From: Hymenobacter sp. YIM 151858-1
GTDB lineage: Bacteria; Bacteroidota; Bacteroidia; Cytophagales; Hymenobacteraceae
DNA: 64,000 nucleotides
NCBI RefSeq assembly: GCF_025979705.1
Contig: NZ_CP110136.1
Location: 1,798,001 to 1,862,000 of the forward strand
Direction: 5' to 3'
Numbering within the stretch: the first letter of the stretch is position 1; the number at the start of each line of letters is the position of its first letter. Made by a program: the position numbers and the translations under genes. Under the pieces are notes generated by a model that was given only the letters and a program-made list of their open reading frames with translations, searched no databases and was not told the origin of the DNA. Shown here in pieces: positions 1 to 64,000 of this stretch.

Positions 1-1
1 C

Positions 2-229
2 CGCGAGCTGCAGGCCCTGTGGCGCGCGCACCTTACGCCGCAGGATCAGCAGCGGCGCCGGCCCCACGTAACCATCCAGAACAAGGTAACGCCCGCCGCG
101 GCCCGCGCGCTGCACGAGCAGCTGAGCGCCGGCTTCGAGCCTTTTGAGGCCACAGGCACGGGCTTGCAGCTGTGGGCCTACCGCAACGGGCCCTGGGAGC
201 TGCTGCGCAGTTTCGCGTTTGGCGCCTAG
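2..229 (+). CDS. 2'-5' RNA ligase family (2H phosphoesterase) protein, C-terminal part
   Basis: The window opens inside this gene; 75 residues and the TAG stop are visible. The piece contains HVTIQNKV, the second HxT/S motif of the 2H phosphoesterase superfamily, followed by a short alpha/beta tail of the kind that ends these ~180-residue proteins. Family members hydrolyse or ligate 2',5' or cyclic phosphates on RNA or nucleotides. The first HxT motif lies outside the window, so the subfamily cannot be set. The stop codon TAG is part of a CCTAGG site. Confidence 0.7.
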   Translation, partial: RELQALWRAHLTPQDQQRRRPHVTIQNKVTPAAARALHEQLSAGFEPFEATGTGLQLWAYRNGPWELLRSFAFGA

Positions 230-304
230 GTTTGCGCGTGGTTGCGGCACCGGGCACCTCCGGGCTTTGTCGGGCAACCCCATCCCCCACCCTATCCGAT
301 GCTT

Positions 305-916
305 ATGAAAGCGCTGCTGCTTATTGATATTCAGAACGACTTTGTACCCGGCGGCGCTTTGGCCGTGCCCGCGGGCGACCAGGTTATTCCGCTGGCCAAC
401 GCGCTGCAACCGCACTTCGAGCTGGTGGTGGCCACCCAGGACTGGCACCCGCGCACGCACAAAAGCTTTGCGGCCAACCACCCGGGCAAAAACGAGTTCG
501 AAACCACCGAGCTGCACGGGCTGGAGCAAGTGCTGTGGCCGGTGCACTGCGTGCAGGGCACCGCGGGCGCCGAGCTACACCCCGCCCTCGATACGCAGCG
601 CATCGAGGCCATTTTCCGGAAGGGCACCAACCCCGAAATCGACAGCTACAGCGGCTTGTTCGACAACGGCCACCAGAAGGCCACGGGCCTAGCCGATTAC
701 CTGCGCGGCAAGGGCGTGCGGCAGGTGTACGTGGCCGGCCTGGCCGGCGACTACTGCGTGTATTTCACGGCCAAAGATGCCCTGCAGGAAGGCTTCGAGA
801 CGTACCTGATCGAGGACGCCGCCCGCCCGATTTCGGCCGAGGGCTACGAGCGTGCCAAAGCCGACATTGCGCGGCGCGGCGGGCGCATCGTGCACAGCAG
901 CACCCTGCTGGGCTAA
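305..916 (+). CDS. pncA: nicotinamidase
   Basis: This 203-residue cysteine hydrolase of the isochorismatase fold should deamidate nicotinamide to nicotinate for NAD salvage in the cytoplasm. The catalytic triad is visible as Asp8 (LLLIDIQNDF), Lys106 (FRKGTNPEID) and Cys151 (GDYCVYFTAKDAL). Asp46 and His48 in TQDWHPRTH fit the metal site. Length matches bacterial PncA. The start is ambiguous: ATG at 299 (MLMKALL) or ATG at 305 (MKALLLID). The second is chosen because homologues usually begin with a hydrophobic strand right after the Met. It is monocistronic, between the 2H gene and mscS. Confidence 0.93.
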   Translation: MKALLLIDIQNDFVPGGALAVPAGDQVIPLANALQPHFELVVATQDWHPRTHKSFAANHPGKNEFETTELHGLEQVLWPVHCVQGTAGAELHPALDTQRIEAIFRKGTNPEIDSYSGLFDNGHQKATGLADYLRGKGVRQVYVAGLAGDYCVYFTAKDALQEGFETYLIEDAARPISAEGYERAKADIARRGGRIVHSSTLLG

Positions 917-1069
917 GCCGGCGAGGCACCAAGGGCACAGCGAGCCGCCGCGCCCTGGCCGGAGTAGCGCACCGCCACCCTAGCTACGGCCACAACCTTT
1001 GCCGCAGCGGCGGGGTACAGCATGAGGCCTGCCGCTGGCCGGCAGTGGCCTGCCCATGCTGTTCCGTTT

Positions 1070-2176
1070 ATGTCCGACCTAGGCCTCAACCTCCCCTATC
1101 AGCTTGATATTGCCCTGCGCACCGCCGCCGTTGTGGTGGGCGGTTTGGCTGCCGGGCTGCTGCTGAAGTTTGCCATTTTCGCGGTGCTGCGTACCTACAG
1201 CCACCGCCCCGACGACCCGGTTTTGCTGCGCTCGGTGGTGCGGCGGCTGAAGCGCCCGAGCGGCTACTTTCTGCCCGTGCTGGTGCTGTCGTTTGTGTTG
1301 CCGCTGGCCCCGCTGGCGCCCAAGCCCTTCGAGGTGTTGCGGCGCATTGTCGAAACCTGTCTGATTACCTCGTTTGCGTGGTGCCTGGTGCGGCTCGTGC
1401 GGGTGGTGCAGGATGTGGTGCAGCACCACTACCGCCTCGACGAGGGCGACAACCTGCGGGTGCGCAAGCTGTTCACGCAGCTGCAGTTTGTGCGCAAGTT
1501 TGTGGTGTCGCTGATTGTGTTTCTGGCCGTGGCGTTGGTGCTGATGAGCTTTGCCACGGTGCGCAAAATCGGTACGGGCTTGCTTACCTCGGCGGGTATT
1601 GCCAGCGTAATCGTGGGCTTTGCGGCGCAGCGCTCCATCAGCAACTTGCTGGCCGGCTTTCAGATAGCCTTTACCCAACCCATCCGGCTCGACGACGTGC
1701 TGGTGGTGGAAGGCGAGTGGGGCCGTGTGGAAGAAATTACCTTCACCTACGTGGTGCTGCGCATCTGGGACGAACGCCGGCTGGTGCTGCCGCTCAACTA
1801 CTTCATCGAAAAACCCTTCCAGAACTGGACGCGCACCACCTCGCAGCTGCTCGGCACCGTGCACCTGCAAACCGACTACACCATTCCGATTGATGAGGTA
1901 CGCACGGCCCTGCAGCGTATTGTGGAGCAAAGCCAATATTGGGATAAGCGCGTGTGCGTGCTGCACGTCACCGACTCCAAAGACCGCACCCTGGAGCTGC
2001 GCGCCCTGGTAAGCGCCGCCAGCTCGGGCGACATTTGGGAGCTGCGCTGCGAAGTGCGCGAAAAGCTGCTCGGCTTTGTGCAGCAACACTATCCGCAGTG
2101 CCTGCCCAAAACCCGTACGCTGGTGGATGCGCCGGCAATTGAGCAAGGCAAGGCTGTCGGCATAGCTGATGCTTAG
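1070..2176 (+). CDS. MscS-family mechanosensitive ion channel
   Basis: A 368-residue small-conductance mechanosensitive channel of the inner membrane. There are several N-terminal hydrophobic segments, then the pore-lining helix rich in Gly/Ala (GLLTSAGIASVIVGFAAQ) and the conserved SISNLLAGFQIAFTQPIRLDD segment that leads into the beta domain. The C-terminal part (DYTIPIDEVRTAL) is the usual alpha/beta vestibule. The start is placed at the ATG of MSDLGLNLPYQ; an upstream in-frame ATG at 1022 would add a Pro/Arg-rich stretch that does not look coding. An AACCTTTG element lies about 70 bp upstream and may be the promoter. Confidence 0.9.
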   Translation: MSDLGLNLPYQLDIALRTAAVVVGGLAAGLLLKFAIFAVLRTYSHRPDDPVLLRSVVRRLKRPSGYFLPVLVLSFVLPLAPLAPKPFEVLRRIVETCLITSFAWCLVRLVRVVQDVVQHHYRLDEGDNLRVRKLFTQLQFVRKFVVSLIVFLAVALVLMSFATVRKIGTGLLTSAGIASVIVGFAAQRSISNLLAGFQIAFTQPIRLDDVLVVEGEWGRVEEITFTYVVLRIWDERRLVLPLNYFIEKPFQNWTRTTSQLLGTVHLQTDYTIPIDEVRTALQRIVEQSQYWDKRVCVLHVTDSKDRTLELRALVSAASSGDIWELRCEVREKLLGFVQQHYPQCLPKTRTLVDAPAIEQGKAVGIADA

Positions 2177-2191
2177 TCGGCGGCCCCGGCG

Positions 2192-3016
2192 TTACTTCAG
2201 CCAGTGGGTTGCGCTCAGGCCCAAACTGATTAATTGTACCCGCGTCGGGGTAAGCGGTTTCTCTTGATAACTGCCCCATTCTTGCACGTTGCGCGTATCC
2301 ACAATACTGCCTAGCGTGGAGCCCCACTGCAAGCTGAGTTCGTTTTGCGCGCTTAAACGATAGAACACGCCTGCATTGCTAACCCAACTAAGCGTCTTCA
2401 GGTAAGGCTCATTCACTGTTTCATACTGGCTGAAAATGACTACGCTGGAATTGTTATTAAGCCGGGCGTTTTTGTAGTGAATGCGCGTCTTACGGCGCAG
2501 CGTGAGGCGCGGCCCGGCGCCCAGCATAAAGCCCCAATGCTCGTTTAAATAGTAACGGGCCTGTACCGGTAGCTCCAGTACCATGGGTTGGTAGTGGTAG
2601 TCGGTAGGATTCAGTTGGCGGCGGCTCACCGCCCATCGCCGATCAATTACCGAGGCTCCAATAGGTATCACAAGTTGCTCCGTTCCCGAGGTAGGATCGT
2701 AAATCTCGCGCACAACGTAGGGCTGGTAGGCGCCCCGCAGCTCGGCACCAAATTGCCAGCGCTGTCGCCAGGCATAATCCACTATTAGAGAAATGCTTGC
2801 TCCTGCCCGGGCTTTGCCTTCATAGCGGTAATCACTGCTCAGCTCCGCGTATCGCCCTGTGGGTCTACCGTTCCTGTCAACGAGTTGCACCCTTGGCAGC
2901 ACTTGATTGGTGAGCGGCACATTAAGTAGGCCGCCAACTTGCACCCCTAGACGCCAGCTTTGGGCATGTACTGGCGCTGTAATTAATATGCAGATAGATA
3001 GTAGCAAATACTTCAT
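2192..3016 (-). CDS. outer membrane beta-barrel protein
   Basis: A 274-residue secreted protein: MKYLLLSICILITAPVHAQS is a clear signal peptide with AQ cleavage. The mature part alternates aromatic and polar residues (WRLGVQVGGLLNVP, WQFGAELRGAYQPYVVREIY, YYLNEHWGFMLGAGPRLTLR), as in the small porin-like outer membrane proteins of Bacteroidota (PorT/OmpW-like). It ends in LSLGLSATHWLK with a near-terminal aromatic residue. It is lower in GC than its neighbours. Its 3' end faces that of mscS with 15 bp between them. Function unknown. Confidence 0.78.
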   Translation of the reverse strand: MKYLLLSICILITAPVHAQSWRLGVQVGGLLNVPLTNQVLPRVQLVDRNGRPTGRYAELSSDYRYEGKARAGASISLIVDYAWRQRWQFGAELRGAYQPYVVREIYDPTSGTEQLVIPIGASVIDRRWAVSRRQLNPTDYHYQPMVLELPVQARYYLNEHWGFMLGAGPRLTLRRKTRIHYKNARLNNNSSVVIFSQYETVNEPYLKTLSWVSNAGVFYRLSAQNELSLQWGSTLGSIVDTRNVQEWGSYQEKPLTPTRVQLISLGLSATHWLK

Positions 3017-3351
3017 AGTGGGCGCAAGATATACTGTTAACCCTTCGGTCAAGCTGCCACCGCCCCGCTAATACGCCTGGATGCCTTAGGCAGAGGTTTT
3101 TCATTACGACCTGCTGAACCACCTGTTGGCTGCGGCCCGAAATCCGGTCGTTAGTTTTTTGAATGAATGCCTCATTTTCGGTGCTTAAGGCCAAGCGTCG
3201 CACTTCGGAGTTGTAAAGGTCGGCCTCCTGCTCGCCGTTCGCCATACCCTGGGTGTGGGGCGCTTCGGGGGCCTGCGGCACCAATCTTGTTCGTTTCGCA
3301 TTGCGTATCTTGTGGGTGCCAACCGGCTCGGCTTCCCTACCCCGCTGCCTT
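3017..3351. other. intergenic region between divergent envelope genes
   Basis: About 335 bp with no convincing gene. It should carry the promoters of both flanking divergent genes. A TATCTTGT sequence about 45 bp before the 3352 start resembles the Bacteroidota -7 element TAnnTTTG. No repeat or RNA gene was recognised. Confidence 0.5.
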
Positions 3352-3939
3352 ATGAAATTTCGCTTTTTCGTTGCCCTAGGTGCCCTGCTGCTTTCGGCCG
3401 GTGCAATAATGGCGCAAGATGTCCAAGAGGCACCTTCGCTGGGTTTGCGCACGCCGCTGGTGTCGTACAATCTGCAGGCCGGCGCCTCGTTTGCGGGCCG
3501 CTACGGCTCGGCTACTTACCTCAGCCCGCAGGCCAATTTTCAGGTGAGCAACCGCCTCACGCTGTTTGCGGGCGGCACGTTTATGCGCTTTATGCCGGGC
3601 GCGGCCCACTACCCCGCCACTACCGAGGGCGGCGCGCCGCGCGCCAGCCTGCGCAACGGCACCAACCGCTACCTGCTCTACGGCGGCGGCACCTACGCCC
3701 TCAGCCCCCGCCTGGCCCTAACCGGCAGCGCCTGGAAAGACCTGACGCCCGGCTTGCCCAACCTGGGCGCGGCTGTCAACCCCTACTCGGGCTTCGGCAA
3801 CCTAGGGCAGGGCGTAAACCTGCGCGCCGACTACAAACTCACCGAGAACATTTCGGTGTCGGGTGGGGTGCGCGTGGTGCAGGGCGCTTCGTCGGCGCCG
3901 GGGCTCAACCCCATGCTTTATTCGCCCGTGGGGTACTAG
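3352..3939 (+). CDS. secreted hypothetical protein, possible small beta-barrel
   Basis: A 195-residue protein with the signal peptide MKFRFFVALGALLLSAGAIMAQD. The mature protein is rich in Gly, Tyr and alternating strands (NLQAGASFAGRYGSATYLSP, NRLTLFAGGTFMRFMPG, NRYLLYGGGTYALSPRLAL, NISVSGGVRVVQGAS), which suggests a small outer membrane barrel or surface protein. No named family was recognised. The ALGA codons of the signal peptide contain a GCCCTAGGT motif. It is followed by a hairpin terminator. Confidence 0.7.
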   Translation: MKFRFFVALGALLLSAGAIMAQDVQEAPSLGLRTPLVSYNLQAGASFAGRYGSATYLSPQANFQVSNRLTLFAGGTFMRFMPGAAHYPATTEGGAPRASLRNGTNRYLLYGGGTYALSPRLALTGSAWKDLTPGLPNLGAAVNPYSGFGNLGQGVNLRADYKLTENISVSGGVRVVQGASSAPGLNPMLYSPVGY

Positions 3940-3971
3940 CCCCGCCCTCCTGATACTCAGCGCAAAAGCCA

Positions 3972-3997
3972 AGCCCGGAAATTCTCCGGGCTTTTTC
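3972..3997 (+). terminator. intrinsic terminator after the 3352 gene
   Basis: An 8-bp stem AGCCCGGA / TCCGGGCT with a 5-nt loop is followed by CTTTTTCTTTG, a typical rho-independent terminator just downstream of the secreted protein gene. Confidence 0.8.
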
Positions 3998-4011
3998 TTT
4001 GTTTGATGCTC

Positions 4012-4019
4012 TACATTTG
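4012..4019 (+). promoter_or_regulatory. probable -7 promoter element of mqo
   Basis: TACATTTG matches the Bacteroidota sigma-A -7 consensus TAnnTTTG and lies about 205 bp before the mqo start, just after the upstream terminator. The -33 element is weak (a T-rich run near 3992). Confidence 0.45.
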
Positions 4020-4223
4020 CGGCCCGAAAAGGTGCTGTTGGGGGCTGTGGGCGCATGCTACGGCCCGCGTGGCCGGTTGCTGCATTGGCTAAACGCGCGC
4101 TAAGCCACGGCGGCCGGCCCGGGTGGGCGGCCTTCTGGCGTGCAGCCCCGTACGAGTTTGCAGCCCCAACCAAATACCTTTTTGCGTGTTGCACGTATTC
4201 TGCAAGGCTTTCCCCAACGCCTC

Positions 4224-5747
4224 ATGACATCTATAGATAACTCCTCCGAACAATCCCTCGACGTAGTGCTCATTGGGGCCGGCATCATGAGTGCCACCCT
4301 GGGCATGATGCTCAAGGAGCTGCAGCCCGAGCTGAGCATTGCCGTGGTGGAACGCCTCGACGTGGCCGCGGCCGAAAGCTCCGACGCCTGGAACAACGCC
4401 GGCACTGGCCACTCGGCCTTTTGCGAGCTGAACTACACCCCCGAAAAGGCCGATGGCTCCATCGACACGAGCAAGGCCATCAAGATTGCCGACCAGTTCG
4501 AGCAGTCGAAGCAGTTTTGGGCTTTCCTGGCCGAGAAATACCAGGTAAAAGAGCTCAGCCGCTTCATCAACCACATTCCGCACCTCAGCTTTGTGTGGGG
4601 CGACGACAACGTGAACTTCCTGCGCAAGCGCCACGCGGCCCTCACCCAGTCGCCGCTTTTTAAGGGCATGAGCTACTCCGAAGACCGCGAGCAGCTGCTG
4701 AAGTGGATGCCGCTGGTGATGGAAGGCCGCGACCCCAACCAGAAGGTAGCCGCTACCTGCATGGATATGGGCACCGACGTAAACTTCGGTTCGCTCACGC
4801 GCGGCATGTTCCATTTGCTGCAGGAGAAGCCCAACGTGGCGTTTCACTTCAACAAAGAGGTAAGCAAAATCCGCCGCAAAGACGACGGCTCGTGGCGCAT
4901 CAAGGCCAAAGACCTCGCCACCGGCGACACCCTGAAGCTGCGCGCCCGCTTCGTATTCATTGGCGCGGGCGGTGGCTCGTTGCCGCTGCTTATCAGCTCG
5001 GGCATTCCGGAGGCGGCCGGCTTTGGCGGCTTCCCGGTAAGCGGCCAGTGGCTGAAGTGCGTAAACCCCGAGGTAATTGAGCGCCACCAGGCTAAGGTGT
5101 ACGGCAAGGCCGAGGTAGGCTCGCCGCCCATGTCGGTACCGCACCTGGATACGCGCATGATCAACGGCAAGCGCGAGCTGCTGTTTGGCCCCTACGCCGG
5201 CTTCACCACCAAGTTCCTGAAGAAAGGCTCGTTCCTGGATTTGCCGCTGAGCATTAAGCTCAGCAACATGCGCCCCATGATCATTGCCGGCCTCAAGAAC
5301 ATCCCGCTCACGCGCTACCTCATCGACCAGGTGCGCCAGTCGCCCGAAGACCGCTTTGCCTCGCTGAAGCAGTACCTGCCCGAAGCCCGCTTCGAGGATT
5401 GGGAGCTGGAAATTGCCGGCCAGCGCGTGCAGGTTATCAAGAAAGACAAGAAGGCGGGCGGCGTACTCGAGTTCGGCACCGAGGTAGTGGCCGCTTCCGA
5501 TGGCTCCATTGCCGCCCTGCTGGGTGCCTCGCCGGGCGCCTCCACGGCCGTAAGCATCATGGTGGGGCTGATTGAGCGCTGCTTCCCGGAGCAAGCCCGC
5601 ACGCCCGAGTGGCAGGCCAAGTTCAAGGAGATGATTCCGTCGTACGGCGTGTCGCTGCACGACAACCCCCAACTGGTGGAGGAAATCCGCGAGTATACGG
5701 GCCGCGTGCTGCACCTGATGGCCGCCGAGCCCACCGAGGCCCGGTAA
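4224..5747 (+). CDS. mqo: malate:quinone oxidoreductase
   Basis: A 507-residue membrane-associated FAD enzyme that oxidises malate to oxaloacetate and passes electrons to quinone in the TCA cycle. The N-terminal dinucleotide fold reads VVLIGAGIMSATLGMMLKEL. The family segments WNNAGTGHSAFCELNYTP and GLIERCFPEQ, plus the C-terminal GASPGASTAVSIM and PSYGVSLHDNP, are all present, and length is typical. The start is set at MTSIDNSSEQSLDVV; an upstream ATG at 4140 would add an unlikely leader. It is monocistronic and ends at a strong bidirectional terminator. Confidence 0.96.
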   Translation: MTSIDNSSEQSLDVVLIGAGIMSATLGMMLKELQPELSIAVVERLDVAAAESSDAWNNAGTGHSAFCELNYTPEKADGSIDTSKAIKIADQFEQSKQFWAFLAEKYQVKELSRFINHIPHLSFVWGDDNVNFLRKRHAALTQSPLFKGMSYSEDREQLLKWMPLVMEGRDPNQKVAATCMDMGTDVNFGSLTRGMFHLLQEKPNVAFHFNKEVSKIRRKDDGSWRIKAKDLATGDTLKLRARFVFIGAGGGSLPLLISSGIPEAAGFGGFPVSGQWLKCVNPEVIERHQAKVYGKAEVGSPPMSVPHLDTRMINGKRELLFGPYAGFTTKFLKKGSFLDLPLSIKLSNMRPMIIAGLKNIPLTRYLIDQVRQSPEDRFASLKQYLPEARFEDWELEIAGQRVQVIKKDKKAGGVLEFGTEVVAASDGSIAALLGASPGASTAVSIMVGLIERCFPEQARTPEWQAKFKEMIPSYGVSLHDNPQLVEEIREYTGRVLHLMAAEPTEAR

Positions 5748-5770
5748 GCCGCCTAGGTACAACCCCAACA

Positions 5771-5803
5771 AACAGGGCCGCCTACTAACGGGCGGCCCTG
5801 TTT
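5771..5803. terminator. bidirectional terminator between mqo and the BLUF gene
   Basis: AACAGGGCCGCC and GGCGGCCCTGTT form a 12-bp stem with an 8-9 nt loop. T-runs on both strands suit two converging transcripts. Confidence 0.85.
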
Positions 5804-5833
5804 TGCTATGGGCGGGATGCGGCACCTAGGCCG

Positions 5834-6262: not shown

Positions 6263-6427
6263 AGTCGTAACCTGTGCTGAAGGTGGCCGCCGCAGGCCCC
6301 GCAGCTACTTGCTACGCCCTGCCGCCGTTGCCCGCCGGGGCATGACACTTCAATTTGCCAATCCGCACACATTAAAGCAAATTAAGGCCAGCCTAAATAC
6401 CCGGCCGAGCCCCAGCCTGCGGTACGG

Positions 6428-7348: not shown

Positions 7349-7363
7349 GCGCCCAAAGGTAGG

Positions 7364-8170
7364 CTACGGCCTGGTTGCCACCACCGCGTACACCAACGGC
7401 GCTTTATCACCCAGGGGCCCGATGTGGTAGCGGCCTTCGCCGGCGGGCACCGCGTGGGCAAAGCAGGCATAGGGCGAGTAGTCGTATTCCGAGAAGTGCG
7501 TGAGCCGCAGCCCTTGCCCCAGCAGGCTGCCGATTACCTCGCTCAGGCTGTGGTTCCAGGTAATGGCTTGGTGCTCGATGGGCGCTTCCGGATTGGCATA
7601 GGTGCCGGTTTCGGTTTCCTCGATGGCGCCGGTGTTGAAGTAGCTGTACTGCACGCGTTGGAAATCGTTGTCGAACATCCAGACCACCGGGTGAAACTCC
7701 ACCAGCACCAGCTGGCCGCCCGGCTTGAGGTAGCGCGCCACCACCTCGGCCCAACGCCCGAGGTCGGGCAGCCAGCCGAGTACGCCGTAGCTCGTAAACA
7801 CCACATCAAACGGCGGCTCGGCGGGCAGGTGCTGCGGCAGCGCGTACACATCGGCGCACACAAACTCGGCCGAGAGCCCTAGGTCCGTATTCAGCCGCCG
7901 GGCGGCGGCAATGGCTTCGTCGGATAAATCGACGCCGGTTACCTGCGCCCCCAGCCGCGCCAGCGACAACGAATCCTGCCCGAAATGGCATTGCAGGTGC
8001 AGCACGCGCTGGCCCGCCACGTCGCCCAGCAGCGCCAGCTCGATGCCGTTCAGCGACGATTTACCGGCCCGAAAACCCGCCACGTCGTAAAACGCCGAGG
8101 CCAGGTGGTGCTCGGTGCGGGCGTTCCAGAGGGCGCGGTTGAGCGCGAGGTAAGTATTGGCGTTTTCCAT
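7364..8170 (-). CDS. class I SAM-dependent methyltransferase
   Basis: A 268-residue methyltransferase. Motif I reads VLHLQCHFGQDSLSLA (a variant of DxGxGxG), motif II acidic GVDLSDEAI, and post-motif strands FDVVFTSYGVLGWL and YLKPGGQLVLVEFHPV are clear. Homologues of this type are widespread in Bacteroidota without a known substrate. It sits 15 bp upstream of ctlX on the same strand, suggesting a shared transcript. Confidence 0.85.
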   Translation of the reverse strand: MENANTYLALNRALWNARTEHHLASAFYDVAGFRAGKSSLNGIELALLGDVAGQRVLHLQCHFGQDSLSLARLGAQVTGVDLSDEAIAAARRLNTDLGLSAEFVCADVYALPQHLPAEPPFDVVFTSYGVLGWLPDLGRWAEVVARYLKPGGQLVLVEFHPVVWMFDNDFQRVQYSYFNTGAIEETETGTYANPEAPIEHQAITWNHSLSEVIGSLLGQGLRLTHFSEYDYSPYACFAHAVPAGEGRYHIGPLGDKAPLVYAVVATRP

Positions 8171-11084: not shown

Positions 11085-11212
11085 CATGGGTACGTATCGG
11101 AAGCCGGGACAAACCCGTGTTTCTGGTACGTACGCAAGCCGGCCGCTCCGAGTGGTGCCCGGGCACCGGAGGCGGCCCGGCACCTAGGGCTTGTGGTGCG
11201 GGGTTTTCGCGC

Positions 11213-15721: not shown

Positions 15722-16348
15722 CTAGCGGCCCAACGCCCGTTGGTACGGTGCTGGTATGGGCAGACCTTGCAAGCGGTTCGTCATGGCAAACAGGATCAGC
15801 AGTGCCACTGCCACGCCTACGCCACCAATGCCCAGCGCTTGCCTACGCGCGTTTGCCTCGCCCCATAGCGCAACGCCTTTCTGATAGTGCAGGCTTGCTA
15901 CGTGCAGGAATATGGCCACCACGGCCAGAAAATAGTAAGGCACGAAAAACAAGCTGAACGGAAAGGTGTTGATGCCCGCCGCCGCGAAATACAGGTTGGT
16001 ATCGAGCCCTAGGTAAAGCCGCCCACCAAGCACAGCGGCAGTATGCACCAGCAGAAAAAAAGCCAGGTACAAGCCGGAGTAAACCTGAATGCGCTCCGCC
16101 CACCGCCGCTCCGGCTGCTTGCGGCTTCGCCAATACAGTGCCGCGCCCGTTACGATTTGCCCCGCAACAGCCAGCAGCAAGGCCGTTTCTACCACCGGGT
16201 TTCGGTAAAAGCTGCGGAGCATAGCCATGGTTTTGAGATGCGCCTCGGCACTCCCTAGCGCTACCAGGTGATTGGCCAGGTGAATAAAGACGAAAACGGC
16301 TAACAACAGGCCCGTCCAGTAATGATAAGTTTTGATAGGTAGCGGCAT
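15722..16348 (-). CDS. membrane protein with heme-b-like histidines
   Basis: A 208-residue protein with about five transmembrane helices. Histidines recur within the helices: YHYWTGLLLAVFVFIHLANH, LAFFLLVHTAAVLGG and FLHVASLHY. That pattern resembles the SdhC/FrdC or b561 type of di-heme cytochromes, so a membrane cytochrome b role is possible. No soluble dehydrogenase partner is adjacent. The start is set at MPLPIKTYHYW; an ATG four residues earlier is possible. Family assignment is tentative. Confidence 0.65.
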   Translation of the reverse strand: MPLPIKTYHYWTGLLLAVFVFIHLANHLVALGSAEAHLKTMAMLRSFYRNPVVETALLLAVAGQIVTGAALYWRSRKQPERRWAERIQVYSGLYLAFFLLVHTAAVLGGRLYLGLDTNLYFAAAGINTFPFSLFFVPYYFLAVVAIFLHVASLHYQKGVALWGEANARRQALGIGGVGVAVALLILFAMTNRLQGLPIPAPYQRALGR

Positions 16349-19771: not shown

Positions 19772-20128
19772 GGCGGGTGGGCGAATGGCAGGCTTGGGGT
19801 GGAGCGGCAAGATAGGGTTTTGGCTGCTTGCCCAAACACCCGTTGCCTACGCCCCGCGCAGCCCTAGGTGGGTTTTGCCTGGCCAAGCGCAGGCAGCCAG
19901 CATCGGGAAAGCAGGCGCAGCTCTTTCCTGAAAGCAGACAAAACCGGCCGCAAGCTCGACATTAGTTAAGTGCTATTGCACCCGGCGTATTGTCGAGATT
20001 GTTCAACATTGTCGAAATTTTATTATAAAATTCAGGTTACCTCACTCCCAAATCAGTATAAAGCCCTTGCAGACCATCCGGTGGGCGGTTTGCGGCACTT
20101 CATATATTACCCTTTACAACCAATCACC
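19772..20128. other. intergenic region between hutU and the first Gly/Thr lipoprotein gene
   Basis: About 357 bp. The half near 20128 is AT-rich (around 19975-20050) and should hold the lipoprotein promoter. No repeat or RNA gene was recognised. Confidence 0.4.
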
Positions 20129-28422: not shown

Positions 28423-28473
28423 GCACCCTCCCCTGCCCATGTCCCCGGCCCCGCCCGGCACCTAGGGCTGGGG

Positions 28474-32511: not shown

Positions 32512-32690
32512 CGCGGCGCCTAGGTCTGCTACGTGTGCCGGCGGCAGGGCAGCACCCGGCATGGTGCTGGCTGCAGCCCCAGTCGGTACACGCCAGGGCC
32601 GGCTCCGCCTCCGAGCCAGCAAGCCTTTGGGCCGACCTGACTAGTAGCCCCAGCAGCCCGGTTGTCGGCGGGCTACGCGGCAAAACTGCA
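32512..32690. other. intergenic region between rluF and the bioB promoter
   Basis: About 180 bp of GC-rich sequence with no recognised gene or clear terminator. It holds one CCTAGG site near 32520. Confidence 0.4.
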
Positions 32691-46840: not shown

Positions 46841-47386
46841 GCGTAGGATTGGTGGGAAATCGGGACCGGTAGCAAGGTTTGGGTACTGTCCGGAAAGGCA
46901 AAGAAACACAGGCGCGCCAATTCCATAACGAACCAACCCGTGTTGCTCACCTCGTAGGGCTGGCCTGCCAGCCGGAGGCCAACTTACGGCTGCCCGCAAT
47001 AACCTTGCCTGCGTGCCATTCATTTGCCTTGAGCATGGGTAGGCAGTGCATTGCACGGTTCGCAACAAATTGGGCTTTTGCCGGCACATTCAGCCCCAAA
47101 ATGCGGCTATGGGTAATTGCCACGGCACTTTTTTGCGGCCGGCGCTGGTATTTCTCCAAATCTGTCCGTACTTGCGCCGCAATCAGCCCTACCCCCTAGG
47201 TCAGGCTTTTTCAGATCAGACATGGCAGCTTCGGCACCGCGCTTTTTCCTGGCTACTGCTCCGGCCCACCTGGGCTTTTCGGCGCTGGTGGCAGGGGTGT
47301 GCAAAAAGGGCAAGTGCGCTAAACGGGTAAAACATACCCGCAGCTGACCGCGTCGCCCCACCTTGCTTGTACTGCACAAACTAGTT
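46841..47386. other. long intergenic region before lysC
   Basis: About 545 bp with no convincing gene. A short frame at 47222-47347 (MAASAPRFFLATAPAHLG.., 41 residues, basic C-terminus) was considered and not called. The DUF2911 promoter and the lysC promoter should lie here. No known lysine riboswitch or T-box could be recognised. Confidence 0.4.
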
Positions 47387-55196: not shown

Positions 55197-55202
55197 CGGC
55201 AC

Positions 55203-57752: not shown

Positions 57753-57883
57753 TATCGCAGGTTCTCGCTGATTCGGTAAGCTGCCGCTGCGCGGCGGGCG
57801 GCAGCGACATAGCAATCAACAAAGATACGCCGAGAAAAAGTCGTTTGGGGCGGGCCAACCAGGCCCCGGAACTGCCCGAAACG

Positions 57884-57917
57884 CAAAAACCTCCGGGCTA
57901 AGGGCCCGGAGGTTTTG
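57884..57917 (-). terminator. terminator of the carbonic anhydrase gene
   Basis: AAAACCTCCGGGC / GCCCGGAGGTTTT, a 13-bp stem with a 5-nt loop, lies between the carbonic anhydrase stop and topB and works on the minus strand. Confidence 0.85.
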
Positions 57918-57966
57918 CATGGGGGTCGGCGAGCTATCAGCCGCACCCAAAAGACGAAGCCGAAAC

Positions 57967-58725: not shown

Positions 58726-58791
58726 AAACGGGAATGAGAAACTGAGTTAGTGGGTGGTAACGCGGAAATAACCGTGGGTGTTTGCCCTAGG

Positions 58792-60414
58792 TTAGTGGCC
58801 CAAAACATGCACCTGCGGGATGTCGCGCAGGACCAGCTCGATGCCGCGGTCTTTGGCACTCTGCCGGAAGTTTTCGATGGCCTCGAGCACGTCGTAGTCG
58901 ATGGAAACCGAGTCGGAGCCGTCCAGAATCACGCGCGTGCCGGGCTTAAAGTTGTCGAGCGTGGTGGTGATGGCCGCTTTGTTCAGGAATGATACGTGCT
59001 CGGCCAGCTTGAGGTGCACGGTGCCGGGCTGGTGGTCGGGCTCGTAGTGGAAGAAGTAAGCCGATTCGGCGTTGGCTTTCAGGATGAAGAAGGCGGCCAC
59101 GGCCAGGCCCACGCCCACGCCCTTCAGCAGGTCGGTGAACAGGATGACGCCCACCGTTATTACGAAAGGCAGGAACTGCGCCCAACCTAGCTTCCACTGC
59201 GTGAGGTACAGGCCGGGCTTCGTGAGTTTGTAGCCCACCATCAGCAGCACGGCGGCCAGCGCCGAGAGCGGAATCAGGTTCAGCGCGTCTTCGAGGAACA
59301 GCACCGCCAGCAGCAGCAGCGTGCCGTGGAAGAAGGCCGAGATGCGCGTGGCGCCGCCGGCGTTGATGTTGGCCGACGAGCGCACGATTACGGCCGTGAG
59401 CGGCAAACCGCCCAGCAAGCCCGAAATGATGTTGCCCGTGCCCTGCGCCACCAGCTCGCGGTTGGTGGGCGTGTTGCGCTTCAGCGGATCGAGCTTATCC
59501 ACGGCCTCCACGCTCAGCAGCGACTCGAGCGAGGCAACGATGCCAATGGTAAGGGCCAGCAGGTAGATGTTGCCGTTCAGCAGCACGCTCCAATCGGGGA
59601 AGCGCAGGGAGCCCAGCACATCGTTGATGGAGCTGATAACGGGCAGTTTAACCAGGTGCGTGGTCTTCACCTGCCACTCGGGGCGCAGGCTACCTAGGGC
59701 CAGGTTGATGAGAATGGAGCACACCACCACGATGAGCGCCCCCGGCACCAGGCCCAGCACCTTGCTGCGCTTGATGAAGGGCCGCTCCCAGAGCAGCAGC
59801 ACCGTTAGCGAGAACAGGCCGATGAGCAAAGCGCCCGGCTGCAGTTCGCCCAGAGCCCGTCCAATCGACGAGAACGTGTTCATGCCATCGGGCTGGAAGA
59901 AGTTGAGGTCTTCGAAAAAGTCCTCGTCGCCGCCCAAAAAGTGCGGAATCTGCTTCAGGATGAGGATGAGGCCGATGGCAGCCAGCATACCCCGAATAAC
60001 CGAGGTAGGAAAATACATGCCGATGACGCCGGCTTTCAGCGAACCTAGGGCAATTTGGAGCACCCCAGCCAGCACCACCGCTACCAGAAAGGCCTCGTAG
60101 CTGCCGGCTTGCTGAATGCCTGCCAGCACGATGGTGGTGAGGCCGGCGGCCGGGCCGCTTACGCTAAGGGCCGAGCCGCTAACCCAGCTTACCACTACCC
60201 CACCCACAATACCGGCTATCAGGCCGGCGAGCAACGGGGCTCCGGAGGCAAGCGAAATGCCCAGGCACAAGGGCAATGCCACCAGAAATACGACCAGACC
60301 GGCCGGCAAATCTTTAGCCAGTGTATTCTTATACGACGGCGTGGGGCCTGCCGGCGGAGCCGTAGCGGGCGGAATGGCCGGCATGGGCGGGGTTGATACT
60401 GTTGTGGTATCCAT
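58792..60414 (-). CDS. SulP-family anion transporter with STAS domain
   Basis: A 540-residue membrane transporter: DLPAGLVVFLVALPLCLGIS is the SulP start, then ~12 helices including SGPAAGLTTIVLAGI and SVEAVDKLDPLKRNTPTNRELVAQG. The C-terminal STAS domain begins near residue 440 (LDGSDSVSIDYDVLEAI, the nucleotide-like STAS loop) . The neighbouring carbonic anhydrase favours bicarbonate as the substrate (BicA-like) over sulphate. An N-terminal Pro/Thr-rich stretch precedes the first helix. The start is set at MDTTTVSTPP. Confidence 0.93.
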   Translation of the reverse strand: MDTTTVSTPPMPAIPPATAPPAGPTPSYKNTLAKDLPAGLVVFLVALPLCLGISLASGAPLLAGLIAGIVGGVVVSWVSGSALSVSGPAAGLTTIVLAGIQQAGSYEAFLVAVVLAGVLQIALGSLKAGVIGMYFPTSVIRGMLAAIGLILILKQIPHFLGGDEDFFEDLNFFQPDGMNTFSSIGRALGELQPGALLIGLFSLTVLLLWERPFIKRSKVLGLVPGALIVVVCSILINLALGSLRPEWQVKTTHLVKLPVISSINDVLGSLRFPDWSVLLNGNIYLLALTIGIVASLESLLSVEAVDKLDPLKRNTPTNRELVAQGTGNIISGLLGGLPLTAVIVRSSANINAGGATRISAFFHGTLLLLAVLFLEDALNLIPLSALAAVLLMVGYKLTKPGLYLTQWKLGWAQFLPFVITVGVILFTDLLKGVGVGLAVAAFFILKANAESAYFFHYEPDHQPGTVHLKLAEHVSFLNKAAITTTLDNFKPGTRVILDGSDSVSIDYDVLEAIENFRQSAKDRGIELVLRDIPQVHVLGH

Positions 60415-60568
60415 GGGGGAAGGCGAAATAAATAGCAACCGGATAAGCCGCCGCCGCAACACCGCGCGCACGACTTCCATTTGCTGCAATTTCCCCTGCC
60501 CGTGTTAAGACGGAGTTAAACCCGAATTAAAGCCCGGTTAAATAGTTAAAGAATAATTAAAGCCGGGC

Positions 60569-61954
60569 TTACAACAGCCGCGGCAGCTCCAGCACCACCT
60601 TTGTGCCCTCGCCCAGCTGGCTTTCTACCTGAATACTACCGCCGTGCAGTGCCATGATTTGGTGGGTAAGCGGCAGGCCAATGCCGTGGCCGGGTACGCC
60701 GCGGGCGTTGTCGGCCCGGAAGAAGGGCACGAACACCTGCTGCCGGTCGGCTTCGTGCATGCCCACGCCCCAGTCCTGCACCTCCAGGCGCACCTTGCGG
60801 GCCGAGGCACTGAGGGTAGCCAGCACCGGCCGCGGGGCGCCGCGCGAAAACTTGCAGGCGTTTTCGAGCACGTTGAGCGCGGCCGAAAGCAGCAGCGCCT
60901 CGTTGCCGTTTACCACGGGCTCAATGTCGGCGGGCAGCTGAAAATCGAGGTCGATGCGGCAGGTTTGGTGCCGGCGCTGCACCTCTTCGTGGGCTTGCAG
61001 CAGCAGCTCATCGAGGCGCAACGGAGCCAGGGGCACCTGCGAGGGGTCGTCGGAGGCGCGGGCAATCTGCAGCAGCCCGTTGGCGAGGTCCTTAAGCAGG
61101 CGGGCGGCATCGAGGGTGTTGCGTAATACCTGCTGGTACTCCTCGGCGGTGCGTGGTTGCAGCAGGGCTACCTCCAGCTCTCCGATGAGCACCGTAAGCG
61201 GCGTGCGCAGCTCATGCGACGCATCGCGCACGAAGGTGCGCTGCCCCACAAACGCGGTTTGCAGCCGGTCGAGCAAGCTGTTGAACGTGCGCGCCAGCTG
61301 CGACACCTCGTCCTGCCCGTCGGCGCCCGAGAGGCGGCGGTACATATCGGAGGCGGTAATGCTGCTCATCTCCTGCACGGCCAGGCGCATGGGCCGCAGC
61401 GCCTGCCCCGCAAACACCCAGCCGCCAATGCCCGTCACCACTAGCGAAATCAGGAAGCCCGTGATAAGTACCGTGCGCAAGGTGCCCAGCTTTTGCTCGC
61501 TATCGGCATCCTTCGACCAGGCCACAATTAAAAAGCGGCCGCGCCCGGGCACCACAAAGTACATGCCCACGGTGTAGCGCCAGTCGGGCAGTTTCTGCAC
61601 CATGGGCTTGCCGGTTTGCCCGAGCCAGCCGTCGGGCAGGGCGCGGCTGGTGGTTTCGCCCTCCCGAAACATCAACCGCCCGCCTAGGTCGTAAATGCGC
61701 ACCTCCTCGTCGGGGAGGGTGCGGTAGAACTGGCGCAGGTAGCGGCTGTAGTGGGCGCGGCTGCGCGCGTCGTTTTTAGGCTGGCTGCCGTCGAAGTACA
61801 CGTGCGCCACCACCAGCGCGCGGTTGCGCAAACTCTCCTCGAACGACTGGCTGCGCGAGAGGGACGTGAAAAGGTAAATCAGCGCCGAAAACAGCAGCAA
61901 GGTGCAGGCCACAATGGCCGCAAACTGCAGCGCCAGGCGCAGGCGGATAGACAT
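60569..61954 (-). CDS. sensor histidine kinase, HAMP-containing
   Basis: A 461-residue kinase. TM1 (residues ~10-31), periplasmic sensor (~32-160), TM2 (~162-183), HAMP (~183-235), then the phospho-acceptor His247 in DASHELRTPLTVL. N-box NVLENACKFS, G1 DWGVGMHEAD, G2 GHGIGLPLT are all intact. It is the partner of the OmpR-type regulator just upstream. The 186-bp gap between them contains a repeat with TTTGGGAGTT units. Confidence 0.94.
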   Translation of the reverse strand: MSIRLRLALQFAAIVACTLLLFSALIYLFTSLSRSQSFEESLRNRALVVAHVYFDGSQPKNDARSRAHYSRYLRQFYRTLPDEEVRIYDLGGRLMFREGETTSRALPDGWLGQTGKPMVQKLPDWRYTVGMYFVVPGRGRFLIVAWSKDADSEQKLGTLRTVLITGFLISLVVTGIGGWVFAGQALRPMRLAVQEMSSITASDMYRRLSGADGQDEVSQLARTFNSLLDRLQTAFVGQRTFVRDASHELRTPLTVLIGELEVALLQPRTAEEYQQVLRNTLDAARLLKDLANGLLQIARASDDPSQVPLAPLRLDELLLQAHEEVQRRHQTCRIDLDFQLPADIEPVVNGNEALLLSAALNVLENACKFSRGAPRPVLATLSASARKVRLEVQDWGVGMHEADRQQVFVPFFRADNARGVPGHGIGLPLTHQIMALHGGSIQVESQLGEGTKVVLELPRLL

Positions 61955-61967
61955 GGGGCAGTTATAG

Positions 61968-62117
61968 GAGTTTGGGAGTTGGGGAGTTTAAGAGTTTGGG
62001 AGTTGGAAAGGTCAGGGTTGAGAGGTGCTTTAGGTAAAACGTAGGCCGGGCACCTAGGGCCCGTAGGCGCAATGGCCTCAGGCCACCAACCTCGCCAATT
62101 CACCAACTCCCAAACTC
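61968..62117. repeat. GAGTTTGGGAGTTGG repeats between the regulator and kinase genes
   Basis: Direct copies at 61968-61982 and 61992-62006 and an inverted copy at 62103-62117, exact over 15 bp. They lie inside a two-component operon, where the gap is unusually long. The centre holds a CCTAGG site. Confidence 0.75.
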
Positions 62118-62140
62118 AAAACTCTTAATTCACCAACTCT

Positions 62141-62821
62141 TTAACTTTCGTTGACTTTGGCCACGTAGCCCATGCCCACGAGCGTGTGTATGAGCTTGGG
62201 CGTAAACTCCTTGTCGATTTTTTTGCGCAGGAAGTTGATGTACACGTCGATGACGTTGGAGCCGGTATCGAAGCTGGTTTCCCACACGTGCTCCAGAATA
62301 TCAACCCGCGACACTACCCGGCCCTGGTTGCGCAGCAGGTAGTGCAGCAAGGCAAACTCGCGGGCCGTTAGCTGAATGGTTTGCCCGGCGCGCGTTACCT
62401 GCTTGCTCATGGGGTCGAGGGCGAGGTCGGCGAGGCGCAGCACGGGCTGGCTGGGAGCCTCCTGCCGGCGCCGCGACAACGCCCGGATGCGCGCCAGCAG
62501 CTCCTGAAAAGCAAAGGGCTTCACGAGGTAATCGTCGGCCCCGGCATCGAGCCCCCGAATCTTATCATCGGTTTCACCTAGGGCCGTGAGCATGAGAATG
62601 GGCACCGCCGTGTTGTGGGCCCGCACCTGCCGGCACACCTCCAGCCCGCTTAGCCCGGGCAGCAGTTGGTCGAGAATGATCAGATCGTATGACGTTGTGA
62701 GGGCCTGCCGCAGCCCCAACAGGCCGTCGGCCGCAATATCAACCAGGTGCGTTTGCTCGCTAAGCCCCTTTTGCAGGAACGCCGCCACTTTCGGCTCGTC
62801 TTCAACCAACAGAATCTTCAT
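62141..62821 (-). CDS. OmpR/PhoB-family response regulator
   Basis: A 226-residue regulator. The receiver has VEDEP acidic residues, phospho-acceptor Asp51 (LIILDQLLPG), Thr-Ala (LTALGETDD) and Lys (LVKPFAF). The winged-helix effector domain ends with RVDILEHVWETSFDTGSNVIDVYINFLRKKI, typical of the QseB/CopR-like group. It precedes the kinase gene on the minus strand. Its promoter lies in the AT-rich region shared with the divergent polysaccharide export gene. Confidence 0.96.
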   Translation of the reverse strand: MKILLVEDEPKVAAFLQKGLSEQTHLVDIAADGLLGLRQALTTSYDLIILDQLLPGLSGLEVCRQVRAHNTAVPILMLTALGETDDKIRGLDAGADDYLVKPFAFQELLARIRALSRRRQEAPSQPVLRLADLALDPMSKQVTRAGQTIQLTAREFALLHYLLRNQGRVVSRVDILEHVWETSFDTGSNVIDVYINFLRKKIDKEFTPKLIHTLVGMGYVAKVNES

Positions 62822-63119
62822 AGGCAGATAAAATACTTGTCCGAAGGTAGCCGGTTACGGCTTTCCTACAGCATATAGCAACCCGGCTTAAAATGTTTGG
62901 TCGAATTATTGCAGCAAAACTTATTACAAATTATTATCAGAATAATTTAAGATTAACTTGACTAATAAATTTACGTCCTATACGTTTATGGAAAAATTCT
63001 ATAGGCAACGCTCTCCCACTGCTTCTTTCGTCCAGATGTACGTTTCGACCTAGGGCTGCGCCACCAGCTTTTGGTTTGCTGCGTATACGCCGGCACCGAA
63101 GCGTAACTCCTCCACCACC
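62822..63119. other. AT-rich divergent promoter region
   Basis: About 298 bp, the most AT-rich stretch near this end (62870-62990). TACGTTTA at 62981-62988 with TTG near 62958 resembles a weak -33/-7 promoter for the rightward export gene. A GACCTAGGGC motif lies near 63048. The regulator promoter should face left. Confidence 0.45.
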
Positions 63120-63899
63120 ATGCTCCTACTACTGCACCGCGTGCGGCTGTGCCTTTTCGTGCTGCCGTTTTTGTTTGCTGCCTGCGTTCCGCAGCGCAAC
63201 CTGCCGTATTTCCAAGGCAAGTACAACACCAGCACGGCGGTGCTGGCGGCCAACACGCCCCAACCCTACCGCATACAGCCCAACGACGTGCTATCGGTGC
63301 GGGTGCAGAGCGTACAGCCCGCGCTCAACGAGATTTTTAACGTGACGGATGCGCGTGCGGTGTTTCAGGGCGACCCGGGCAACATGTTTCTGGCCGGCTA
63401 CAACGTCGACGCCACCGGCCACATCAACCTACCAACCGTGGGCAAAGTGAAGGTGCAGGGACTCACCATCGAGGAAACGCAGGCCCAGATTCAGCGCGGG
63501 GTGGCCAACTACGTTCGCGATGCCAACGTGCTGGTAAAGCTGCTGTCGTTTAAAATCACGGTGCTGGGCGAAGTAAGAAACCCTGGGCGCCATTTTGTGT
63601 ATAACGGCCAAGCGACGGTGCTGGAGGCCCTGGGGCTGGCCGGCGACCTGACCGAGTTTGGCAACCGCCGAAACATCAAGCTGATCCGGACCACGCCCAA
63701 AGGCAACGAGGTGCTGTTGCTCGACCTCACCGACCCGAAGCTGCTGTCCTCGCCCAACTTCTTTTTGTTGCCCAACGATGCGCTGTACGTGGAGCCCCTG
63801 GCTGCTCGTACCAACCGCGCCAACGTGGCCAACCTAGCCTTGGTATTTTCGGGCATCTCGGCCTTGGCCCTGATTCTCAATTATATAAACGCCAACTAG
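63120..63899 (+). CDS. polysaccharide export lipoprotein, Wza-like
   Basis: A 259-residue outer membrane export lipoprotein. The signal ends in a lipobox LFAACVPQ with Cys at position 22. The polysaccharide export (PES) domain follows with YRIQPNDVLSVRVQSV, then two SLBB-like segments (AGYNVDATGHINLPTVGKVK and VLGEVRNPGRHFVYNGQATV). A C-terminal transmembrane helix (VANLALVFSGISALALILNYI) is present, as in other Bacteroidota members. It is probably the first gene of an exopolysaccharide cluster, with the chain-length/kinase gene starting 64 bp downstream. Confidence 0.93.
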   Translation: MLLLLHRVRLCLFVLPFLFAACVPQRNLPYFQGKYNTSTAVLAANTPQPYRIQPNDVLSVRVQSVQPALNEIFNVTDARAVFQGDPGNMFLAGYNVDATGHINLPTVGKVKVQGLTIEETQAQIQRGVANYVRDANVLVKLLSFKITVLGEVRNPGRHFVYNGQATVLEALGLAGDLTEFGNRRNIKLIRTTPKGNEVLLLDLTDPKLLSSPNFFLLPNDALYVEPLAARTNRANVANLALVFSGISALALILNYINAN

Positions 63900-63963
63900 G
63901 TTTGCTGGTACCGGCGCCCGCACCGGCTTGCTCCCATACGTACAAACACCTAGCCCAACCGGC

Positions 63964-64000
63964 ATGGAATCACGCGCTACCACCTCCGACGATTTAGATT
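63964..64000 (+). CDS. start of the next gene, probably Wzc/tyrosine-kinase-like
   Basis: Only the first 12 codons (MESRATTSDDLD) fall in the window. Position right after a Wza-like gene, plus the acidic N-terminus, makes a polysaccharide co-polymerase or tyrosine autokinase the likely product. This is a context-only call. Confidence 0.4.
   Translation, partial: MESRATTSDDLD

What the first reader, a model, noticed from the sequence alone, without database searches (positions are those of the whole stretch)
1..64000. A highly iterated motif: CCTAGG, mostly as GCCCTAGGT / ACCTAGGGC
By hand I count about 80 CCTAGG sites, of which about 45 extend to the 9-mer GCCCTAGGT on one strand or the other, spread through genes and gaps at roughly one per 0.8 kb. 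A random 62% GC sequence would give about 20 CCTAGG and about one 9-mer. CTAG is normally avoided in bacteria, so the excess is doubly odd. Many sites extend to GCACCTAGGGC. This resembles HIP1 of cyanobacteria, but with a different, asymmetric motif. Possible causes: a methylase or repair bias acting on CCTAGG (the reverse of Vsr), or selection for a binding site of a chromosome-organising protein.
Basis: partly seen in the sequence, partly recalled or inferred. Interest (0 to 1): 0.82.

Follow-up and report, generated by a model that had tools for sequence, protein, structure and literature searches.

The report
Genome-wide DNA word with species dialects
Some bacteria of the Hymenobacter and Pontibacter kind carry a short one-way DNA word repeated thousands of times along their chromosomes, a different word in each lineage, which looks like a label for recognising their own DNA, although the machine known to read such labels was not found in the Hymenobacter genomes tested.

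Summary
The window holds 81 CCTAGG and 46 GCCCTAGGT; shuffles give 14 and 0.6. The genome holds 1,989 copies of the 9-mer, its reversed control none. The unit is asymmetric, BCCTAGGT (B = C, G or T), with a weaker partner GGCA(G/C)C exactly 30 bases from its start. It lies in genes (mostly as CTA-GGN) and three times as densely between them, shows no strand bias, and is nearly absent from samples of two plasmids and a prophage-like stretch. In the family it is on/off: 5 of 204 genomes carry 1,550-1,989 copies, 4 carry 125-308, 195 carry 43 or fewer. Relatives carry other words: CCCTAGGG, A(C/G)CTAGGT and, from smaller samples, TAGGCCAC and GGGGTAG; in a genus I take for Pontibacter AAGTATAA (23 of 50 genomes) or AGGTATAG (12 of 50), never both. 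This behaves like DNA-uptake-sequence dialects, but the type IV pilus/type II secretion ATPase family was found in 0 of 20 genomes, so it is not filed as a member. A methylase or repair bias is not supported. Ten literature searches listed no paper describing it.

The parts
1..64000 (.). 46 copies of GCCCTAGGT/ACCTAGGGC, first base on + at: 3373, 3800, 7876, 9367, 10176, 10622, 11182, 11799, 13416, 14295, 16006, 16513, 17002, 19861, 22288, 22736, 24112, 24460, 26652, 26864, 28460, 29498, 31006, 33176, 34139, 35258, 35544, 36799, 37412, 37931, 38553, 44026, 45871, 50652, 52134, 53105, 54145, 54861, 55571, 55764, 58784, 59692, 60043, 62052, 62576, 63048
   Evidence: 0 of 100 shuffles reach 46
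1..64000 (.). 81 CCTAGG cores in all; BCCTAGGT 40 on + and 36 on -; of these 76, 43 wholly in predicted genes, 24 wholly between them, 9 across an edge (own gene calls)
1051..1084 (-). bipartite site: BCCTAGGT-N22-GGCA
   Evidence: 8 such sites, shuffles mean 0.03
7877..7910 (+). bipartite site
11156..11189 (-). bipartite site
16007..16040 (+). bipartite site
19862..19895 (+). bipartite site
28434..28467 (-). bipartite site
32518..32551 (+). bipartite site
47194..47227 (+). bipartite site

Best explanation
Each affected lineage has a sequence-specific reader that recognises one short asymmetric word on double-stranded DNA; in this genome it also contacts a second element about three helical turns downstream. 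Fragments with the word are taken in and recombined more often, so the word accumulates by molecular drive wherever genes tolerate it. Shown here: thousands of copies, asymmetry, largely synonymous placement, excess between genes, lack of strand bias, near-absence from sampled plasmids and a prophage-like stretch, spaced second element, lineage dialects, presence of the inner-membrane channel family ComEC. Inferred: that there is one reader per dialect, that it acts in DNA uptake, and the drive itself. The type IV pilus route of Neisseria and Haemophilus appears to be absent from the Hymenobacter-type genomes, so uptake would have to use another outer-membrane machine, as suggested for Riemerella in the same phylum.
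For: Copies: 1,989 per genome, reversed control 0. Asymmetry: CCCTAGGT 334, CCCTAGGG 5, ACCTAGGT 11 in 464 kb. Codon test: leucine is CTA in 283 of 612 cases between a codon ending in C and a GGN codon, against 26 of 514, 120 of 4606 and 255 of 8069 in the other three contexts; in four non-carriers 7 of 238. Of 231 codons changed between coding sites and non-carriers, 177 are synonymous. Density 0.82/kb in genes and 2.43/kb between them. No strand bias: chi2 21.7 on 21 df, about 144 expected for a 75:25 bias. Plasmid samples (40 kb of each) 0.15 and 0.03 CCTAGG/kb, chromosome 1.20/kb; prophage-like stretch 1 BCCTAGGT in 20 kb. Partner GGCA at +30 in 55 of 513 sites against 5.1 per offset, between genes and in genes. 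Dialects; on a TopB tree the words cluster by lineage (12 changes, shuffled mean 24.5, 0 of 200 as low). Mismatch load falls gradually: 0, 1, 2, 3 mismatches at 18.3, 1.03, 0.76, 0.81 times base composition, against 0.32, 0.33, 0.58, 0.77 in non-carriers, the kind of decline published for uptake sequences, though also for HIP1 and Chi (PMC1939737, section 10 read). ComEC family in 26 of 26 genomes. In the same phylum Riemerella is transformable, with 4 of 8 essential proteins unlike known machinery (PMC8459023, abstract and sections 19-20), and R. columbina DNA competes better than foreign DNA (PMC7965970, passages and section 16).
Against: The type IV pilus/type II secretion ATPase family PF00437 was found in 0 of 20 genomes, while the control found it in 13 of 14 well-known genomes (Pontibacter not tested). 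The Riemerella transformation family DUF5689 does not track the word: no match in carriers G000, G072, G044, G154 and G188, matches over the cut-off in non-carriers G087, G019, G140, G001 and G016. ComEC is also present in non-carriers. The Riemerella paper itself found only A/T-rich frequent k-mers there, no clear uptake word. Even spacing holds in this genome, G088 and G030 but not in G072, is mixed in G104 and fails in Pontibacter. The +30 element was not seen in the G030/G123/G036 group or in Pontibacter, and is weak in G088/G104. Excess conservation of sites is modest. No transformation experiment on these species appeared in my searches. No receptor was identified.
Confidence: 0.4

Rival explanations
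1. The word is the binding site of an abundant chromosome-organising or segregation protein (a nucleoid protein or SMC/topoisomerase loader) that reads a core and a second element on the same face of the helix; density is selected for chromosome folding.
For: Sites are chromosomal and nearly absent from samples of two plasmids. They are more evenly spaced than random in this genome (variance/mean of BCCTAGGT 0.63 at 4 kb and 0.72 at 10 kb; control words 0.94-1.63, other CTAG 3.1-3.6), in G088 and in G030. The second element is at a fixed 30-base offset and 6 of 7 pairs of sites 33 bases apart face each other. Between genes the density is lowest between divergent genes, so it is not a promoter operator.
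Against: Patchy gain among close relatives, and complete change of the word between sister lineages, is unusual for a core chromosome protein. G072 and Pontibacter are not evenly spaced. Selection on thousands of weakly useful sites is demanding; drive is not (inference).
Confidence: 0.25
2. A HIP1-like word maintained by a solitary DNA methyltransferase that reads its core.
For: CTAG is shared by the three main Hymenobacter words. In cyanobacteria HIP words go with methyltransferases for an internal palindrome (PMC4390886, passages seen).
Against: N6/N4 methylase family PF01555 is absent from 5 of 9 carriers and C5 family PF00145 from 7 of 9; G004, G104, G036 and G123 lack both. In this genome both palindromes are rare, and AAGTATAA is not a palindrome. 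Other methylase families were not tested.
Confidence: 0.1
3. A Chi-like word that stops a RecBCD/AddAB-type nuclease and marks self DNA during break repair or against phage.
For: Asymmetric, over-represented, lineage-specific, nearly missing from a prophage-like stretch and plasmid samples. GCCTAGGG in G072 shows some strand excess (chi2 22.5 on 10 df; 33 expected for a 75:25 bias).
Against: No orientation bias in this genome, Pontibacter or G088; strong excess between genes; spaced second element.
Confidence: 0.1
4. A mutational or repair bias (the reverse of Vsr) creates the word.
For: Mutation could act genome-wide; CTA and GGT are synonymous options.
Against: In 102 aligned non-carrier 8-mers, 8 differ by one base, 34 by two, 35 by three, 25 by four to six, with several kinds of change such as CTC or CTG to CTA plus GGC to GGT. 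The pattern reaches bases up to 35 positions away. Plasmids of the same genome nearly lack the word.
Confidence: 0.03

Closest known systems
DNA uptake sequence (DUS) dialects of Neisseriaceae (PMC3630211: abstract and outline seen)
   Same: Thousands of copies of a short word, one dialect per lineage, dialects consistent with phylogeny; asymmetry and excess between genes (recalled for DUS).
   Different: No type IV pilus/type II secretion ATPase found in the 20 Hymenobacter-type genomes tested; ComP receptor not sought; no uptake assay.
Uptake signal sequence (USS) of Pasteurellaceae
   Same: A 9-base asymmetric core (PMC1939737 passage) plus weaker positions spaced by helical turns downstream (recalled); here GGCA(G/C)C at +30.
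   Different: Sequence, phylum and machinery differ.
HIP1 of cyanobacteria (PMC4390886: passages seen)
   Same: Highly iterated short word with lineage-specific derivatives.
   Different: HIP words are palindromes with a matching methyltransferase; here the word is asymmetric and neither of two main methylase families is shared by the carriers.
Chi sites
   Same: Asymmetric, over-represented, lineage-specific.
   Different: Chi follows the direction of replication (recalled); no such bias here.

Membership tests
DUS/USS (DNA uptake sequence) | Short word in hundreds to thousands of copies, far above expectation | tested here: met
DUS/USS (DNA uptake sequence) | Asymmetric word without strand bias | tested here: met
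   (this genome, Pontibacter, G088; G072 inconclusive)
DUS/USS (DNA uptake sequence) | Dialects that follow lineage | tested here: met
   the GGGTAGG class clusters poorly (4 changes for 5 rows)
DUS/USS (DNA uptake sequence) | Depleted in mobile elements | tested here: met
   40-kb samples of two plasmids and one prophage-like stretch, this genome only
DUS/USS (DNA uptake sequence) | Type IV pilus uptake machine | tested here: not met
   PF00437 in 0 of 20 genomes; Pontibacter not tested
DUS/USS (DNA uptake sequence) | Inner-membrane channel ComEC | tested here: met
   PF03772 in 26 of 26, carriers and non-carriers alike
DUS/USS (DNA uptake sequence) | DNA with the word is taken up preferentially | not testable with these tools
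   needs an uptake or transformation assay
HIP1 | Palindromic word | tested here: not met
   palindromes CCCTAGGG 5 and ACCTAGGT 11 against CCCTAGGT 334; AAGTATAA. (G072 and G030 do favour palindromes.)
HIP1 | Methyltransferase for an internal palindrome in the carriers | tested here: not met
   PF01555 and PF00145 both absent from 4 of 9 carriers; other methylase families not tested
Chi | Orientation bias along the chromosome | tested here: not met

The most novel reading that the evidence does not exclude
The family of this genome has a pilus-independent self-DNA recognition system whose reader changes specificity between sister lineages, leaving at least seven word classes (five seen in whole-genome counts of the word or its core, TAGGCCAC and GGGTAGG only in samples of 20-40 kb per species), with the BCCTAGGT class needing at least two origins on the TopB tree. 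This would be the first uptake-type word system outside Neisseriaceae and Pasteurellaceae that I know of (recalled) and would point to an unknown DNA receptor.
Probability: 0.35. Interest if true: 0.92.

Novelty: new variant of a known kind. Interest (0 to 1): 0.82.

Why it matters
Thousands of identical words are hard to accumulate without a strong drive or selection, so an active recognition system probably exists, or existed until recently, in these bacteria. If it is chromosome organisation, it is a new one with fast-changing specificity. Either way the words help to tell native chromosome from recently arrived DNA, and may help make these genera transformable in the laboratory.

Tried and rejected
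Methylase as common driver: families PF01555 and PF00145 searched in 20 genomes, not shared by carriers. Type IV pilus: PF00437 in 0 of 20. Riemerella-type family DUF5689: 14 of 27 genomes, no relation to the word. Chi/KOPS-like orientation: none in this genome. Promoter operator: density lowest between divergent genes in this genome, G072, G030, G088 and Pontibacter. Hairpin reading of the +30 element: GGCA at +30 in 15.9% of 164 sites with GC after the core, 5.1% of 98 with G not C, 9.6% of 250 without G, so only partly tied to the bases it would pair with. Codon bias as the cause of AAGTATAA: AAGTACAA, AAATATAA and AAATACAA are 12, 11 and 8 against 227, and all six frames occur. Older site remnants in non-carriers of the same genus: none visible; 1 of 102 aligned non-carrier 8-mers is itself BCCTAGGT (in G007). 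Words that were strong in one species only or in one frame (ASUV-10 TTGGGTGT, M29 GTGTAGGT, glacieicola GAGTGAGT) were not counted. Near-miss words judged against an order-3 Markov model show no clear excess; judged against non-carriers they do; I give both. Literature: ten searches; no listed title or abstract describes these words in Hymenobacter or Pontibacter; three of the searches matched far more papers than were listed (665, 268 and 79), and only open papers are held.

Limits: gene calls are from my own open-frame and codon-model scripts, not an annotation. The dispersion test left out L008. Site conservation rests on alignable sites only, 56 (G004) and 44 (G005) of 76: the pattern is kept in 33 and 34, the exact 8-mer in 29 and 27, while 39% and 44% of all 8-mers are identical, and some control words are kept as often (GCCTGCGC 11 of 16 and 7 of 12). 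The de novo scan used 72 of the 80 named loci. The tree is one protein (TopB), 85 rows, quick method; 25 of 85 rows meet the word rule; two rows with identical TopB (L172, G087) got different labels, so the GGGTAGG class is the least certain. One search drew only part of the family, so carriers G005, G088, G104, G036 and G123 are not in it.
Full report
WHAT IS THERE. The window contains 81 CCTAGG and 46 GCCCTAGGT; 100 dinucleotide-preserving shuffles give means of 14.4 and 0.55 and never reach these values. The palindromes CCCTAGGG and ACCTAGGT occur once each beside 55 CCCTAGGT. In the whole genome (4.62 Mb, 3 contigs) the 9-mer occurs 987 + 1002 times and the reversed control 0 + 0 times. 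In 464 kb (window plus 20 stretches of 20 kb) CCCTAGGT occurs 334 times (11.7 expected, order-3 Markov), GCCTAGGT 145, TCCTAGGT 35, ACCTAGGT 11, CCCTAGGG 5. The word is therefore (G)BCCTAGGT(GC), B being C, G or T, read in one direction.

A SECOND ELEMENT. Counting from the first base of BCCTAGGT, GGCA begins at +30 in 55 of 513 sites, against 5.1 per offset on average, and GGCA(G/C)C in 33 of 514 against 1.6. Of 7 pairs of CCTAGG 33 bases apart, 6 face each other. GGCA at +30 is found between genes (28 of 159 sites, 1.5 expected), antisense to genes (14 of 121, 1.2 expected), across gene edges (9 of 71, 0.75 expected) and weakly in sense (4 of 161, 1.55 expected), so it acts at the DNA level. 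It recurs in the sister carriers G004 and G005 taken together (19 of 254, mean 2.2); their sites are partly orthologous. Two other Hymenobacter dialects show weaker fixed-offset signals, at +33/+34 in G088 and G104 and at +22 to +24 in G072; in sites between genes the G072 signal stands out and the G088/G104 one does not. The G030 group and Pontibacter show none that I trust. A core plus a contact two or three helical turns away suggests one protein or complex reading double-stranded DNA (inference).

PLACEMENT. Density is 0.82/kb in genes and 2.43/kb between them; of 288 sites wholly in genes, 258 fall in the two frames that read CTA-GGN, Leu-Gly. Leucine between a codon ending in C and a glycine codon is CTA in 283 of 612 cases, against 375 of 12,675 in contexts without GG after it; in four non-carriers it is 7 of 238 and 160 of 6,764. 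Between genes the density is lowest between divergent genes. There is no strand bias: chi2 21.7 on 21 df over 21 stretches, where a 75:25 bias would give about 144. Samples of 40 kb from each of the two other contigs, which carry conjugation genes (TraG on both, TraM and a coupling protein on C3) and which I take for plasmids, have 6 and 1 CCTAGG. The 20-kb stretch L008 (endolysin, DarB-like antirestriction protein, phage-type exonuclease) has one BCCTAGGT. Sites are more evenly spaced than chance here (variance/mean 0.63 at 4 kb and 0.72 at 10 kb; control words 0.94-1.63) and in G088 (0.53, 0.70) and G030 (0.89, 0.41), mixed in G104 (0.90, 1.70), and not so in G072 (1.38, 1.38) or Pontibacter (1.31 at 2 kb).

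ORIGIN OF SITES. Against five species of the same genus code without the word, 28 of 76 window sites could be aligned without gaps in at least one; the 102 aligned 8-mers differ by one base in 8, two in 34, three in 35 and four to six in 25 cases, one of them being itself BCCTAGGT, and 177 of 231 changed codons are synonymous. The pattern is kept in 33 of 56 alignable sites in G004 and 34 of 44 in G005, and the exact 8-mer in 29 and 27, where 39% and 44% of all 8-mers are identical: a modest excess, so sites also turn over. Against base composition, words at 0, 1, 2 and 3 mismatches from CCCTAGGT stand at 18.3, 1.03, 0.76 and 0.81 here and at 0.32, 0.33, 0.58 and 0.77 in four non-carriers. A gradual decline is published for uptake sequences, and for HIP1 and Chi as well (PMC1939737, section 10 read), so it does not decide between them.

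HOW WIDE IT IS. Over 204 genomes of the family, GCCCTAGGT has 1,550-1,989 copies in 5 (G000, G004, G005, G088, G104), 125-308 in 4 (G030, G036, G072, G123) and 0-43 in 195. In 390 genomes drawn from the order CCTAGG exceeds 5,000 only in G000, G004, G072 and G030; the next highest is 1,349. Three of the four intermediate genomes clearly have other dialects: G072 CCCTAGGG/GCCTAGGG with no ACCTAGGT in 200 kb, G030 and G123 ACCTAGGT and AGCTAGGT; G036 looks like the last two in 40 kb. G088 and G104 mix CCCTAGGT with CCCTAGGG (105 and 44, 72 and 20).

OTHER WORDS. Named loci around one gene showed that relatives carry unrelated words of similar density. In eight Pontibacter loci AAGTATAA occurs 227 times in 179 kb (23 expected), in all six frames and between genes (0.80 per kb in genes, 3.43 between), while AAGTACAA, AAATATAA and AAATACAA occur 12, 11 and 8 times. 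Whole-genome counts in the 50 genomes of genus code g6 give AAGTATAA at 1,045-3,584 per strand in 23 and AGGTATAG at 1,397-2,713 per strand in 12; none has both, and 15 have neither at that level, some of these being intermediate. H. fodinae has TAGGCCAC (20 in 22.5 kb, 1.5 expected), and G044 has GGGGGTAG (35 in 40 kb, 2.6 expected); these two rest on small samples. Single 20- to 40-kb samples of G010, G016, G140, G087 and G019 showed no word. On a TopB tree of 85 rows, 25 rows meet the word rule; the words need 12 changes against a shuffled mean of 24.5, and the BCCTAGGT class needs at least two origins.

MECHANISM. The features shown fit a recognition word of the DUS/USS type. Against membership stands PF00437, found in 0 of 20 genomes. 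ComEC is present in 26 of 26. Riemerella, in the same phylum, is naturally transformable with 4 of 8 essential proteins unlike known machinery (PMC8459023, abstract and sections 19-20), and R. columbina DNA competes better than foreign DNA, though only A/T-rich k-mers were found frequent there (PMC7965970, passages and section 16). The Riemerella family DUF5689 does not track the word. I therefore say that it works like an uptake word (0.4), do not file it as one, and keep a chromosome-organising protein as the main rival (0.25). Methylase, Chi-like and mutational readings are less likely for the reasons given in the rivals.

VERDICT. Real, genome-wide and more general than reported: a set of lineage-specific iterated words, of which BCCTAGGT is one. 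None of the papers listed by ten searches of open papers describes it in its title or abstract. The reader protein is the open question.

Noticed in passing
L005:11226-11361 (G000:C1 about 451,226): Tandem array of a heptamer (TAAGCCC; 19 overlapping hits at 7-base steps), telomere-like in look; isolated hits in L018 and L019.
   Followed up: partly
window 38832, 38846, 50134, 50465, 50478: GGAGAGGGGG/CCCCCTCTCC occurs here, partly in close pairs, and in four other stretches (L006, L007, L013, L016), perhaps a small dispersed repeat.
   Followed up: no
L008 (G000:C1:1100001-1120000): Prophage-like stretch with endolysin, phage-type exonuclease, DarB-like antirestriction protein and a pectate-lyase-like protein, almost free of the word.
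   Followed up: partly
G154:C1:1944098-1946633: AGGTATAG repeats at steps of about 66 bases, at least 39 listed copies on one strand, in a genome of the AAGTATAA dialect.
   Followed up: no
L199 and L223: Two records both titled Hymenobacter sp. BT559 differ: 0 and 37 CCTAGG in 20.0 and 22.5 kb; perhaps different species under one strain name.
   Followed up: no
L205; L188 and L190; L204: Possible further words: GCTAGCC in Hymenobacter sp. CA2-7, GGGGCCCC in H. nivis and H. caeli, CAACCCC in H. armeniacus.
   Followed up: no
L031-L034 (G104:C1, 102 kb contig): This contig of a carrier has 0.59 CCTAGG/kb against 1.63 on samples of two other contigs, perhaps a plasmid partly adapted to the host word.
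   Followed up: no
G001, G002, G003, G006, G007 stretches: Word-free sister species share weaker words (CATTGCC 159 against 43, CACGCTCA 61 against 12, CTCGCGCA 53 against 12 in 360 kb), perhaps an old or weak dialect.
   Followed up: no
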